Positions 4,045 through 6,624 of a stretch of 64,000 bases of DNA are shown here, in pieces. Origin of the DNA: Nostoc edaphicum CCNP1411 (GTDB lineage: Bacteria > Cyanobacteriota > Cyanobacteriia > Cyanobacteriales > Nostocaceae); assembly GCF_014023275.1 (NCBI RefSeq), contig NZ_CP054698.1, positions 3,286,001 to 3,350,000 on the forward strand. The letters run 5' to 3'. The position numbers and the translations under genes are program-made. Every line of letters starts with the position of its first letter. Position 1 is the first letter of the stretch. The notes beneath the pieces were generated by a model. The model did no database searches. It saw only the letters and a list, made by a program, of their open reading frames with translations, and was not told the origin of the DNA.

Positions 4045-4115
4045 TGGGTGGTATAGGGGTCGAACCTATTTCTGCGGGTTAAAAGCCCGCTGCACAGCCG
4101 GTATGCCAACCACCC
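4045..4115 (-). tRNA. tRNA-Lys(UUU)
   Basis: Cloverleaf with a 7-bp acceptor (GGGTGGT), anticodon stem GCGGG/CCCGC and loop CTTTTAA giving UUU. The T-loop TTCGACC is canonical. No encoded CCA. This is the last gene of the array. Confidence 0.9.
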
Positions 4116-4196
4116 TGGTGAGTTTAGATAAAGAAATGAGCAAGTGCGATCGTATACTTACATCGCAAACGTTGTTAACACGAACACTAGATATAA

Positions 4197-4270
4197 ATCC
4201 ACCGGGGAGGTACTGCCCCTCCTATTTCTGTGTTATCAGCACAGTGCCTCGCTTTTCGGCTTCAGGTGGA
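4197..4270 (-). tRNA. tRNA-Ile(GAU), T-loop degenerate
   Basis: Anticodon stem CTGTG/CACAG with loop CTGATAA gives GAU. The T-stem GGAGG/CCTCC is intact, but its loop is GGCAGTA and lacks the invariant TTC. Acceptor position 7 mismatches and the discriminator appears to be U. Possibly non-functional. Confidence 0.65.
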
Positions 4271-4275
4271 AAAAG

Positions 4276-4358
4276 AGGAAGATGAAGGAATCGAACCCCT
4301 ACAGTTGCCCATACCCTGGTTTTCAAGACCAGTTGCCGTCCATTCAGCGGCATCTTCC
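4276..4358 (-). tRNA. tRNA-Ser(UGA)
   Basis: Class II tRNA with a long variable arm. Anticodon stem CTGGT/ACCAG and loop CTTGAAA give UGA. Acceptor GGAAGATG pairs fully. The discriminator appears to be U where bacterial tRNA-Ser normally has G. Confidence 0.82.
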
Positions 4359-4365
4359 ATTCAAG

Positions 4366-4440
4366 GGTGTCTGACGGGACTTGAACCCGCTATTACTGGT
4401 TCCACAAACCAGCGCCTCTACCACTTTGGCTTCAGACACC
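4366..4440 (-). tRNA. tRNA-His(GUG)
   Basis: Loop TTGTGGA gives GUG. The gene encodes the extra G at position -1 opposite a C73 discriminator, the hallmark of bacterial tRNA-His. Acceptor, anticodon and T arms all pair well. Confidence 0.92.
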
Positions 4441-4445
4441 ATCAG

Positions 4446-4519
4446 TGGAATCAATGGGAATTGAACCCATAACCTCCTGCTTGCAAGGCAGGCGCTCTAG
4501 CCATTTGAGCTATGACCCC
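4446..4519 (-). tRNA. tRNA-Ala(UGC)
   Basis: Anticodon stem CCTGC/GCAGG and loop CTTGCAA give UGC. The acceptor GGGGTCA pairs with TGATTCC through two G-U pairs, and the discriminator is A. The acceptor differs from typical tRNA-Ala. Confidence 0.88.
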
Positions 4520-4603
4520 ATTAAATTAAGTAAAAAGATCAAAGTAAAAACAAAAAGAAAGAGAAATATTAAATTCATTCTTTTGACTTTTGACTTGTTT
4601 AGG

Positions 4604-4677
4604 CGGGAGTGGTAGGACTTGAACCCACAACTTTCGAGGTAGAAGCTCGAAGCTCTATTCCATTGAGCTACACTCCC
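4604..4677 (-). tRNA. tRNA-Arg(UCU)
   Basis: Loop CTTCTAC in the stem TCGAG/CTCGA gives UCU. Acceptor GGGAGTG/CACTCCC is perfect, with discriminator G. The flanking spacer on its 3' side (4520-4603) is the longest AT-rich gap in this half of the array. Confidence 0.9.
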
Positions 4678-4686
4678 AATATTTGG

Positions 4687-4759
4687 TAGTCCTGGCAGGA
4701 TTTGAACCTGCAACCTCTTGCTTGTAAGGCACTTGCTCTACCGTTGAAGCTACAGGACT
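4687..4759 (-). tRNA. tRNA-Val(UAC), weak anticodon stem
   Basis: Loop CTTACAA gives UAC. Only three anticodon-stem pairs form (AGTGC against GCAAG), so the stem is degraded relative to normal tRNA-Val. Acceptor AGTCCTG/CAGGACT is perfect, the discriminator is A and CCA is encoded (to 4684). Confidence 0.78.
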
Positions 4760-4773
4760 AAGCAAGCGAGTGG

Positions 4774-4856
4774 AGGGACTTGTTCGCGTAGCGTTCTCGA
4801 AGAGTACACACGCACTGAGTATGGCGCACTCAGATGCTACCGATTACATCACACCC
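4774..4856 (-). tRNA. tRNA-Gly(GCC)-like gene disrupted by a short repeat (probable pseudogene)
   Basis: The D-arm (GATG/CATC) and a six-pair anticodon stem (CTGAGT/ACTCAG) are present, and the centred triplet is GCC, but position 33 is not U. The T-arm region contains a short palindromic repeat of the Nostoc type (4781-4804) and no normal T-stem or matching acceptor 3' strand can be drawn. Amino-acid identity is tentative; probably dead. Confidence 0.4.
4781..4804. repeat. Short interspersed repeat inside a tRNA-like gene
   Basis: A GC-rich segment containing TTCGCGTAGCGTTCTCGAAG resembles the short repeats scattered in Nostoc genomes. It occupies the T-arm position of the Gly-like tRNA and accounts for the loss of that arm. 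Confidence 0.45.
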
Positions 4857-4862
4857 GCATCA

Positions 4863-4927
4863 AGCTGGTAACAGGAATTGAACCTGCAACCTACTGATTA
4901 CAAGTCAGTTGCTCTGCCAATTGAGCT
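4863..4927 (-). tRNA. tRNA-Thr(UGU), 5' acceptor strand missing
   Basis: Loop CTTGTAA in stem ACTGA/TCAGT gives UGU, and the D-arm, T-arm and 3' acceptor strand (TACCAGC) are present. The matching 5' acceptor strand (expected GCTGGTA) is absent: the D-stem GCTC begins directly after the CCA of the preceding tRNA-Met. This looks like a small deletion that fused the two genes, so a functional product is doubtful. Confidence 0.6.
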
Positions 4928-4929
4928 GG

Positions 4930-5003
4930 TGACGGGGGCAGGAATTGCACCTGCTGATGTGAGGCTTATGAGACTTCCAAGCCACTCTTGCTTCATCCCC
5001 GCA
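4930..5003 (-). tRNA. tRNA-Met(CAU), possibly initiator-like, CCA encoded
   Basis: Loop CTCATAA gives CAU. Read with acceptor TGCGGGG/CCCCGTC, position 1-72 is unpaired, the discriminator is A and CCA follows (to 4927); a 1-72 mismatch is a feature of initiator tRNAs. The T-loop starts TGC instead of TTC and one anticodon-stem pair is mismatched. An Ile tRNA with lysidine cannot be excluded. Confidence 0.68.
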
Positions 5004-5013
5004 TATTCACCAA

Positions 5014-5086
5014 TACCCCTGACTGGATTTGAACCAGTAACCTCTTCGTTCTAAGCGAAGCGCCTCTTCCGTTGGGCTACAAGGGC
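5014..5086 (-). tRNA. tRNA with Leu anticodon UAG but class I structure
   Basis: Stem CTTCG/CGAAG and loop CTTAGAA give UAG, which reads the Leu codon CUA. The variable region is only about five bases, whereas bacterial tRNA-Leu has a long variable arm. Acceptor GCCCTTG/CAGGGGT pairs through wobble pairs and the discriminator is A. The charged amino acid is therefore uncertain. Confidence 0.75.
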
Positions 5087-5090
5087 AAAG

Positions 5091-5162
5091 TCTGAGTGGT
5101 AGGGATGAACCTACGACCTGGAGTTTCCAAAACTTCCGCGCTCCCACCTACGCCACACTCAG
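5091..5162 (-). tRNA. tRNA-Pro(UGG), first copy, aberrant
   Basis: Acceptor CTGAGTG/CACTCAG is perfect with discriminator A. The best anticodon arm is GAAGT/ACTCC with loop TTTGGAA, giving UGG with one mismatch. The T-loop seems one base short (six bases). Confidence 0.6.
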
Positions 5163-5663: not shown

Positions 5664-5671
5664 ATGAATGG

Positions 5672-5743
5672 CTGCCTCAGTAGGACTCGAACCTACAACC
5701 TCGCGGTTAACAGCCGCTTGCTCTACCATTGAGCTATGAGGCA
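5672..5743 (-). tRNA. tRNA-Asn(GUU), CCA encoded
   Basis: Loop CTGTTAA gives GUU. Acceptor TGCCTCA/TGAGGCA is perfect, the discriminator is G and CCA is encoded (to 5669). All arms are canonical. Confidence 0.92.
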
Positions 5744-5749
5744 ACGAAG

Positions 5750-5824
5750 CCCCCCAGGTCGGAATCGAACCGACGACCTCCTGTTTTTCAAACAGGCGCT
5801 AACTACCGACTGAGCTACCGGGGG
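5750..5824 (-). tRNA. tRNA-Phe(GAA)
   Basis: Stem CCTGT/ACAGG and loop TTGAAAA give GAA. Acceptor CCCCCGG/CTGGGGG pairs; the discriminator appears to be G, whereas A is usual for tRNA-Phe. Confidence 0.88.
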
Positions 5825-5845
5825 ATAGGAGAAGAGATCATGTAA

Positions 5846-5920
5846 CGAGAGCGGAGGGAATTGAACCCTCAAATCTTCAGTTTCGTAGACTGAGATGTTA
5901 TCCAGTTACACCACACTCTC
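5846..5920 (-). tRNA. tRNA-Arg(ACG)
   Basis: Stem TCAGT/ACTGA and loop CTACGAA give ACG, whose A34 would normally be converted to inosine. Acceptor GAGAGTG/CGCTCTC pairs and the discriminator is G. Confidence 0.9.
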
Positions 5921-5924
5921 AAAA

Positions 5925-6013
5925 CGGAGAGAACAGGATTTGAACCTGCGACGGGTATTAACGCCCGCTTCCTCTTAGCAGGAGGACGCTTTTAGCCACT
6001 CAGCCACCTCTCC
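5925..6013 (-). tRNA. tRNA-Ser(GCU)
   Basis: Class II tRNA with a long variable arm (GCGGGCGTTAATACCCG). Loop CTGCTAA gives GCU. Acceptor GGAGAGG/TCTCTCC with discriminator G fits tRNA-Ser. Confidence 0.9.
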
Positions 6014-6017
6014 ATAG

Positions 6018-6100
6018 TGGGTCGAGCAGGATTTGAACCTGCGTGCAAAAAAGAACAGTTTTACAGACTGTCGCCTTCAGCCAGACTCGGCCACCGACCC
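6018..6100 (-). tRNA. tRNA-Tyr(GUA)
   Basis: Class II structure as usual for bacterial tRNA-Tyr, with loop CTGTAAA giving GUA. Acceptor GGGTCGG/TCGACCC pairs and the discriminator is A. Confidence 0.9.
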
Positions 6101-6108
6101 ATAAATCA

Positions 6109-6180
6109 TTCCCTCGACGAGAATTGAACTCGCATCTGTGCTTTGAAAGAACACTGACTTAACCATTCGTCCACGAGGGC
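6109..6180 (-). tRNA. tRNA-Glu(UUC), array copy
   Basis: Stem GTGTT/AGCAC and loop CTTTCAA give UUC. The acceptor has a G1-A72 mismatch. A second, fully canonical tRNA-Glu(UUC) lies outside the array at 12439-12511, so this copy is redundant. Confidence 0.82.
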
Positions 6181-6238
6181 ATAATTTGCAGAATTGTTAG
6201 ATTAAAAAATTTAAAACCTAAAATCCAAAATTGTCTGA

Positions 6239-6310
6239 CACAGGGACTAGGATTTGAACCTAGAATATCGGATTTGGAGTCACGAGGTGTTGCCGTTACA
6301 CCATCCCTGC
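6239..6310 (-). tRNA. tRNA-Trp(CCA), weak anticodon stem
   Basis: Loop CTCCAAA gives CCA and the discriminator is G, as in tRNA-Trp. Acceptor GCAGGGA/TCCCTGT and the T-arm pair, but only about two anticodon-stem pairs form. Confidence 0.7.
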
Positions 6311-6316
6311 ATTTGG

Positions 6317-6389
6317 TGGCAGCGGCGGGATTTGCACCCGCATATACCAGGGTATGAACCTGGGGCTTTGCTGGTTAAGCTACGCTGCG
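6317..6389 (-). tRNA. tRNA-Met(CAU), second array copy, CCA encoded
   Basis: Stem CCAGG/CCTGG and loop TTCATAC give CAU. Position 1-72 is C-C (unpaired), the discriminator is A and CCA is encoded (to 6314). The 1-72 mismatch is initiator-like, but the three G-C pairs of initiator anticodon stems are absent. Confidence 0.8.
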
Positions 6390-6393
6390 ACAG

Positions 6394-6466
6394 AGGTCAA
6401 GGCGGGATTTGAACCCGCGCTAATCGGTTTTGCAGACCAACGCCTTACCAACTTGGCTACCTGACC
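6394..6466 (-). tRNA. tRNA-Cys(GCA)
   Basis: Loop CTGCAAA gives GCA. Acceptor GGTCAGG/CTTGACC pairs and the discriminator is U73, the main identity element for Cys. Confidence 0.9.
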
Positions 6467-6472
6467 ACTTGG

Positions 6473-6546
6473 GAGTCCCGACGAGATTCGCACTCGCAAT
6501 TTTCAGCTTGAGAGGCTGACGGCTTAAACTATTCGCCTACGGGACT
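6473..6546 (-). tRNA. tRNA-Glu(CUC)
   Basis: Stem CAGC/GCTG and loop CTCTCAA give CUC. Acceptor AGTCCCG/CGGGACT pairs. The T-loop begins TGC instead of TTC and the discriminator appears to be C, both unusual. Confidence 0.75.
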
Positions 6547-6550
6547 ACAA

Positions 6551-6624
6551 CCAGGGTGACGGGATTTGAACCCGCAACATTTCCGCAGACAACGGAACGC
6601 TCTAGCCAGTTGAGCTACACCCCG
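6551..6624 (-). tRNA. tRNA-Asp(GUC), first gene of the array
   Basis: Stem TTCCG/CGGAA and loop TTGTCTG give GUC. Acceptor CGGGGTG/CACCCTG pairs and the discriminator is G, as expected for Asp. Confidence 0.9.

What the first reader, a model, noticed from the sequence alone, without database searches (positions are those of the whole stretch)
4045..6624. Chromosome-type array of about 29 tRNA genes
Seen: about 29 head-to-tail tRNA-like genes on one strand in 2.6 kb, covering nearly all amino acids (Gly only as a damaged copy), with tight spacers and CCA encoded in about seven. Known: Anabaena PCC 7120 has a 26-tRNA cluster on a plasmid that I recall as quiet in normal growth and induced by translational stress. 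Inference: this is a related long tRNA operon, redundant with dispersed canonical tRNA genes such as tRNA-Glu at 12439-12511.
Basis: partly seen in the sequence, partly recalled or inferred. Interest (0 to 1): 0.85.

Follow-up and report, generated by a model that had tools for sequence, protein, structure and literature searches.

The report
Emergency tRNA bank beside its repressor
A cyanobacterium's chromosome carries a row of spare tRNA genes behind what looks like a stress-controlled switch, next to the gene of the protein that in a related strain keeps such a row silent, and with a so far unnamed small protein gene between switch and tRNAs, which makes the control of this spare set directly testable.

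Summary
The array is real: 23 tRNAs by ARAGORN on one strand at 4044-6625, plus about six decayed members, on the 7.7-Mb contig of a Nostoc close to strain KVJ20. A dispersed set of 48 tRNA genes covers all 20 amino acids, so the array is supernumerary; only Gln-CUG and Glu-CUC were found in it alone. It is an L-array of the kind of the Anabaena 7120 trn operon, but a distinct lineage. It sits 2.2 kb from the gene of TrcR (8865-9200), the repressor that silences the Anabaena array, and behind a promoter whose -10 region is a tandem TrcR operator. Array beside trcR recurs in 35 of 80 fetched trcR loci. tRNA and HNH-nuclease trees separate these resident arrays from plasmid and scattered arrays. 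Stem changes are mostly compensated, so the tRNAs are selected as structured RNAs. Most likely reading: a TrcR-repressed stress operon (small protein plus spare tRNAs), silent in normal growth. Repression, induction and charging in this strain are inferred. New variant of a known kind.

The parts
6996..7001 (-). -35 hexamer TTGACA of the array promoter
   Evidence: CCCCTTGACA present in all 24 leaders aligned
6973..6990 (-). tandem TrcR operator TGTAGTAT-N2-TGTAGTAT; contains the -10 TAGTAT (6973-6978) 17 nt from the -35
   Evidence: the only tandem hit in the 8.3-Mb genome; TGTAGTAT is the footprinted site in the Anabaena trn promoter (PMC10272220)
6734..6928 (-). conserved 64-aa leader ORF, first gene after the operator, no known family
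6633..6670 (-). inverted repeat around CTGTGCCTAA...TTAGGCACAG between the ORF and tRNA-Asp
   Evidence: function unknown
4044..6625 (-). array of 23 ARAGORN tRNA genes plus about six decayed ones, Asp first, Lys last
6237..6311 (-). damaged tRNA-Trp(CCA), not Gly
4871..4927 (-). tRNA-Thr(TGT) lacking its 5' acceptor strand
5169..5246 (-). decayed tRNA-Leu, 92% identical to Leu-GAG genes of other arrays
7512..7904 (-). alr0857-family protein (NF045647)
7921..8460 (-). HNH nuclease; ortholog of alr0856 inferred from position, related to the HNH beside plasmid arrays
8542..8793 (-). 83-aa ORF, probably the asr0855 equivalent
   Evidence: equivalence inferred from position
8815..8832 (+). ATACTACACTTGTATTAC, exact copy of the TrcR autoregulatory motif, 50 bp 5' of the trcR ATG
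   Evidence: motif from PMC10272220
8865..9200 (+). trcR, 111 aa, repressor gene
12438..12511 (-). dispersed tRNA-Glu(TTC), part of the ordinary set

Best explanation
A chromosomally resident, TrcR-repressed stress operon. In normal growth TrcR, encoded next door, sits on the tandem operator overlapping the -10 box and keeps silent one transcript made of a 64-aa protein gene and then the tRNA array. When translation elongation is impaired TrcR falls, the operon is transcribed, the tRNAs are cut out of the precursor, and a second, divergent tRNA set supports translation while the small protein is made. Shown here: array, redundancy, operator sequence, conserved ORF, locus conservation, selection on tRNA structure. 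Published for Anabaena 7120: TrcR binding and repression of its array, TrcR decline under chloramphenicol. Inferred: the same in this strain, and co-transcription of the ORF with the tRNAs.
For: The exact trcR autoregulatory motif and a 111-aa trcR lie in the window. A -35/-10 promoter with a tandem TGTAGTAT over the -10 lies 348 bp from tRNA-Asp, matching the footprinted Anabaena site. 34 of 36 array loci (35 fetched plus the window) have at least one exact operator 5' of the first tRNA, 27 of them two (my tally; in L120 it is 2.5 kb away). The tandem pattern occurs in 74 of 145 family genomes against 2 of 145 for the reversed pattern; 32 genomes have it 1.3-4.7 kb 5' of trcR in the same orientation. 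Stem cells with both bases changed keep pairing in 399 of 439, against 277 of 824 for slid partners (35 arrays against the window's genes). The 64-aa ORF is intact in 54 of 61 hits with median dN/dS 0.48, and the operator lies 43-48 bp 5' of its first codon in 27 of 30 genomes where both were placed on one contig (my tally).
Against: No expression data for this strain. Several array members are decayed, and 37 of 75 assessable fetched loci have no tRNA within 8.5 kb 5' of trcR, so an array there is dispensable. The ORF is broken in 6 of the 36 array loci and not found in one, so array and ORF can be separated. L108 and L150 have arrays without an exact operator. dN/dS is only moderate and the pairs share ancestry. 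In the Anabaena study, deleting the trn operon from the trcR mutant did not change its resistance to kasugamycin or BMAA.
Confidence: 0.72

Rival explanations
1. The array is a decaying relic of a mobile or phage-borne tRNA cluster that no longer matters to the cell.
For: About six of about 29 members are decayed in the window; loci with one or two tRNAs exist (L110, L123, L139); a locus with tandem operator and ORF but no tRNA exists (L140); array tRNAs are 58-84% identical to the dispersed gene of the same anticodon in the 19 of 23 cases with one to compare.
Against: Double changes in stems keep pairing in 399 of 439 cells; operator conserved in 34 of 36 loci.
Confidence: 0.15
2. The 64-aa protein is the real TrcR target; the tRNA array is a passenger that happened to settle behind its promoter.
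For: The ORF family is found in 52 of 145 genomes, 42 of them 1.2-4.7 kb from trcR on the divergent strand, including loci without an array (L140, L147).
Against: At the fetched trcR loci the ORF follows the array: 35 of 36 with array, 2 of 37 assessable without (my tally). Plasmid arrays lack the ORF but 13 of 14 keep an exact operator half-site between array and HNH.
Confidence: 0.25
3. The array is the essential, housekeeping tRNA set.
For: It covers most amino acids.
Against: 48 dispersed genes cover all 20 amino acids; many relatives lack an array at this locus.
Confidence: 0.01
4. The array counters tRNA-cleaving toxins or phage defences by replacing cut tRNAs, rather than general elongation stress.
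For: In Anabaena TrcR also represses rtcB, an RNA ligase linked to tRNA and rRNA repair; array sequences diverge from the dispersed ones.
Against: I did not search for tRNA-cleaving systems; the published inducers are antibiotics that act on the ribosome.
Confidence: 0.2

Closest known systems
trn operon / L-array of Anabaena sp. PCC 7120 (delta plasmid; 26 tRNA genes)
   Same: Long one-strand array supernumerary to dispersed tRNAs; TGTAGTAT over the -10; HNH gene nearby; gene order shared with other plasmid arrays read here.
   Different: Chromosomal, beside trcR, with an alr0857-family gene and a 64-aa leader ORF; separate branch in tRNA and HNH trees. The 7120 array itself was not held; 14 other plasmid arrays stood in.
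trcR locus of Anabaena 7120 (all0854, asr0855, alr0856 HNH, alr0857)
   Same: trcR, its motif at the same distance, HNH, alr0857 family.
   Different: In 7120 the known tRNA array is on a plasmid; the 7120 chromosome was not examined here.
tRNA array units of Mycobacterium, Firmicutes and phages (search listings only)
   Same: Dense tRNA clusters, partly on plasmids and phages.
   Different: No TrcR control is known to me (recalled). Outside cyanobacteria the rows shown match 3-7% of the 3-kb query.

Membership tests
Cyanobacterial L-array (trn operon type) | Many head-to-tail tRNA genes on one strand with short spacers | tested here: met
Cyanobacterial L-array (trn operon type) | Supernumerary to a complete dispersed tRNA set | tested here: met
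Cyanobacterial L-array (trn operon type) | TrcR site overlapping the -10 box | tested here: met
   Sequence only; binding not measured
Cyanobacterial L-array (trn operon type) | Homologous to known plasmid arrays (shared order) | tested here: met
   two lineages
Cyanobacterial L-array (trn operon type) | Silent in normal growth, induced by elongation inhibitors | not testable with these tools
   needs expression data
Cyanobacterial L-array (trn operon type) | Plasmid location (as in 7120; not general) | tested here: not met
   contig of 7,733,505 bases with the dispersed tRNAs
TrcR | Autoregulatory motif about 50 bp 5' of the start codon | tested here: met
   exact 18-bp match at 8815-8832
TrcR | Ribbon-helix-helix fold | tested here: inconclusive
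   Pfam RHH_4 E 0.01, below cut-off; no structure made
TrcR | Sequence identity to All0854 | not tested
   All0854 itself was not fetched; identified by motif and synteny

The most novel reading that the evidence does not exclude
The trcR locus is a vertically inherited stress-translation island whose parts work as one unit: repressor, HNH nuclease, a small protein made first from the derepressed transcript, and a divergent tRNA set. The small protein or its translation reports on or adjusts the stalled ribosome, and the array tRNAs, including Leu tRNAs without the usual long variable arm, deliberately alter decoding under stress, which would fit the lowered fidelity of the Anabaena trcR mutant. 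The plasmid arrays would be a mobile sister branch of the same system.
Probability: 0.25. Interest if true: 0.8.

Novelty: new variant of a known kind. Interest (0 to 1): 0.6.

Why it matters
Silent tRNA arrays are known, but why cells keep them is open. Here the likely switch, the array and a new small protein lie within about 5 kb on a chromosome, with natural presence, erosion and absence among relatives. That makes function testable by comparing sister strains and by single deletions, and it separates a resident lineage from a moving one.

Tried and rejected
TrcR relatives in IMG/VR: none confirmed with a single-sequence query, which finds close relatives only. In phage records 9 entries, all Nodularia phages, carry a 35-37% identical TrcR-like protein; in the one region read (L166) it lies just before a tRNA-Met, and no array was seen in those 16 kb. 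Leader RNA fold: not more stable than shuffles (z -0.83), so no attenuator is claimed. The inverted repeat before tRNA-Asp has no long T run after it on the array strand, so it was not called a terminator.

HNH as obligate partner: an HNH frame of at least 150 aa is found in 35 of 36 array loci, 10 of 37 array-less and 1 of 3 remnant loci; the gene beside it is intact in 76 of 76 (Fisher 6e-11 on 69 rows, not corrected for the tree). Tree-aware pairs go the same way in 4.3, the other way in 0.2 of 7, median p 0.125. G110 keeps an array of 24 tRNAs, ORF and operator about 35 kb from trcR with no close HNH relative (best E 3.4e-27), so the partnership is a lead only. G110 also shows that 'no array beside trcR' does not always mean 'no array': its contig has the length of L084's, which I had scored as array-less.

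Essential-set reading rejected by the dispersed set. Four 316-aa ORFs of equal length elsewhere looked like insertion sequences but are 24-30% identical and of different families.

Structure of the 64-aa protein (28-row alignment): mean pLDDT 71.9, pTM 0.38, one predicted helix at residues 29-63, rest unsure. Too weak for a fold search, none made.
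Full report
WHAT IS THERE. ARAGORN finds 23 tRNA genes on the - strand at 4044-6625. Gly, Thr, Trp and Ile are present only as damaged copies. The window lies at 3.29 Mb of a 7,733,505-base contig of an 8.3-Mb genome. The neighbours that were scanned are ordinary chromosomal genes (phytoene synthase, an AccD-like protein, Tex, MgtE). The nearest relative in a tree of the neighbouring histidine kinase is Nostoc sp. KVJ20.

REDUNDANCY. The dispersed set is 46 distinct genes (after removing genes fetched twice), Glu-TTC at 12438, and Leu-UAA interrupted by a group I intron (exons read): 48 in all, the number reported for Anabaena 7120 (PMC10272220, Introduction). 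The search behind it scored 150 of 559 candidates, so 48 is a lower bound. Only Gln-CTG and Glu-CTC were found in the array alone. Array genes are 58-84% identical to the dispersed gene with the same anticodon in 19 of 23 cases; the other four had none to compare.

CONTROL REGION. PMC10272220 (I read the abstract, Introduction, five Results sections and Discussion) shows that TrcR represses the plasmid array of Anabaena 7120 through TGTAGTAT over the -10 box, and represses itself through ATACTACACTTGTATTAC. That 18-bp motif is found exactly at window 8815-8832, 50 bp 5' of a 111-aa ORF at 8865-9200. Two TGTAGTAT copies lie at 6973-6990, with TTGACA 17 nt from the second TAGTAT. The tandem is unique in this genome. 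So the repressor gene lies 2.2 kb from the array it is expected to control.

RELATIVES. 35 of 80 carry at least 3 tRNAs 5' of trcR, 3 carry one or two, 42 none; 5 of those 42 have under 2.2 kb of upstream sequence and cannot be judged. The order array, alr0857-family gene, HNH, 83-aa ORF, trcR is kept (HNH missing in L108). Presence (array or remnant) needs 9 changes on the kinase tree of 72 rows against 24.4 for shuffled labels (three of the unjudged loci are in that tree as 'none'): clustered with descent, with repeated loss or gain.

TWO LINEAGES. 14 cyanobacterial plasmid arrays were read (L042-L045, L156-L165, all but one of the 15 best hits). 14 of 14 have an HNH gene beside them and 13 of 14 an exact ATACTACA between array and HNH. 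Order is largely shared with the resident arrays. A tree of concatenated tRNAs puts the 16 mobile arrays (14 plasmid, 2 chromosomal away from trcR) on one side of a branch with support 100; 36 resident arrays and the dispersed set are on the other side, 7 resident arrays were dropped as too short. The HNH tree splits 60 trcR-locus proteins from 16 others (12 plasmid, 3 chromosomal away from trcR, Kovacikia) with support 100; only intact frames went in, and some genomes are in twice. Both are quick trees with SH-aLRT support only; the root is unknown, so which lineage is older is not shown.

THE 64-AA ORF. Between operator and tRNA-Asp lies 6734-6928 (-). tblastn finds it in 61 of the fetched loci, some of them the same genome twice, 54 with an intact frame, 44 distinct. 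Median dN/dS is 0.48 in 607 pairs, below 1 in 99.8%. A neutral simulation leaves the frame open in 11% of draws at 30% divergence, so one lineage proves little; many intact lineages do more. It has no Pfam or NCBIfam match. 43 relatives, and 100 with a profile, carry no Pfam domain; where named they are 'hypothetical protein' but for one 'Transposase', mostly from Nostocales. In 145 family genomes 52 have it, 42 of them within 5 kb of trcR. It was not found in the plasmid arrays. The predicted model is one helix at 29-63 with low overall confidence.

ARE THE tRNAs USED? With 35 other arrays aligned to the window's 23 genes, 8764 of 9264 stem cells pair (133 cells with gaps set aside); of cells with both sides changed 399 of 439 pair, against 277 of 824 when partners are slid. 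Cells are not independent events. Tyr, Ser-TGA, Glu-CTC and His show more broken pairs.

ODD LEU tRNAs. The array Leu genes are 74-79 nt (94 in 36 chromosomal arrays; 28 in 14 plasmid arrays) against 81-85 nt for the four dispersed intron-free Leu genes, so they lack the long variable arm. Whether LeuRS charges them is unknown. The published loss of fidelity in the Anabaena trcR mutant could come from them or from other TrcR targets.

MECHANISM. Most likely a TrcR-repressed operon, as stated under Best explanation. The signal that lowers TrcR is unknown also in Anabaena.

NOVELTY. L-arrays, their induction and TrcR control are known (the 2021 NAR paper is recalled and cited by others; it was not held). 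A find for 'adjacent', 'neighbo' and 'upstream of trcR' in PMC10272220 gave no statement that an array lies beside trcR. Searches for TrcR with tRNA, for the neighbour gene names (four papers in the listing), for a leader peptide of a tRNA operon and for a small protein with a tRNA array in Nostoc punctiforme showed nothing about a trcR-linked array or this ORF in their listings. Two papers were seen as listing only. Within these searches of open-licence papers, the resident lineage beside trcR, the tandem operator across relatives and the 64-aa ORF appear new.

Noticed in passing
L044 2609-2680, L156 5817-5888, L159 6164-6235: 3 of 14 plasmid arrays carry a tRNA with a CTA anticodon (would read the amber stop), in the slot after Trp where several others have Lys-CTT.
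   Followed up: partly
4044-6625 and the other arrays read: Array tRNA-Leu genes (five anticodons, plus one AAG) have short variable arms, 74-79 nt, unlike the dispersed ones.
   Followed up: partly
L166 7962-8527: Nodularia phage vB_NspS-kac65v151: the TrcR-like gene is directly followed by an annotated tRNA-Met.
   Followed up: no
6633-6670: Conserved inverted repeat CTGTGCCTAA...TTAGGCACAG between the ORF and tRNA-Asp; in L118 an insertion of about 60 nt sits in its loop.
   Followed up: partly
L162: Kovacikia minuta (Leptolyngbyales) 1.2-Mb plasmid pA: 33 tRNAs, alr0857-like gene (35%) and HNH in a row; a trcR relative (46%) lies about 400 kb away on the same plasmid.
   Followed up: partly
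L219, L221, L229, L231: trcR loci with a tandem operator but no ARAGORN tRNA in the stretch read; the ORF is found in all four (L229, L231; L219, L221, weak or partial, by coordinates).
   Followed up: partly
7921-8460: The HNH frame is intact mostly where the array lies beside it; elsewhere often broken.
   Followed up: partly
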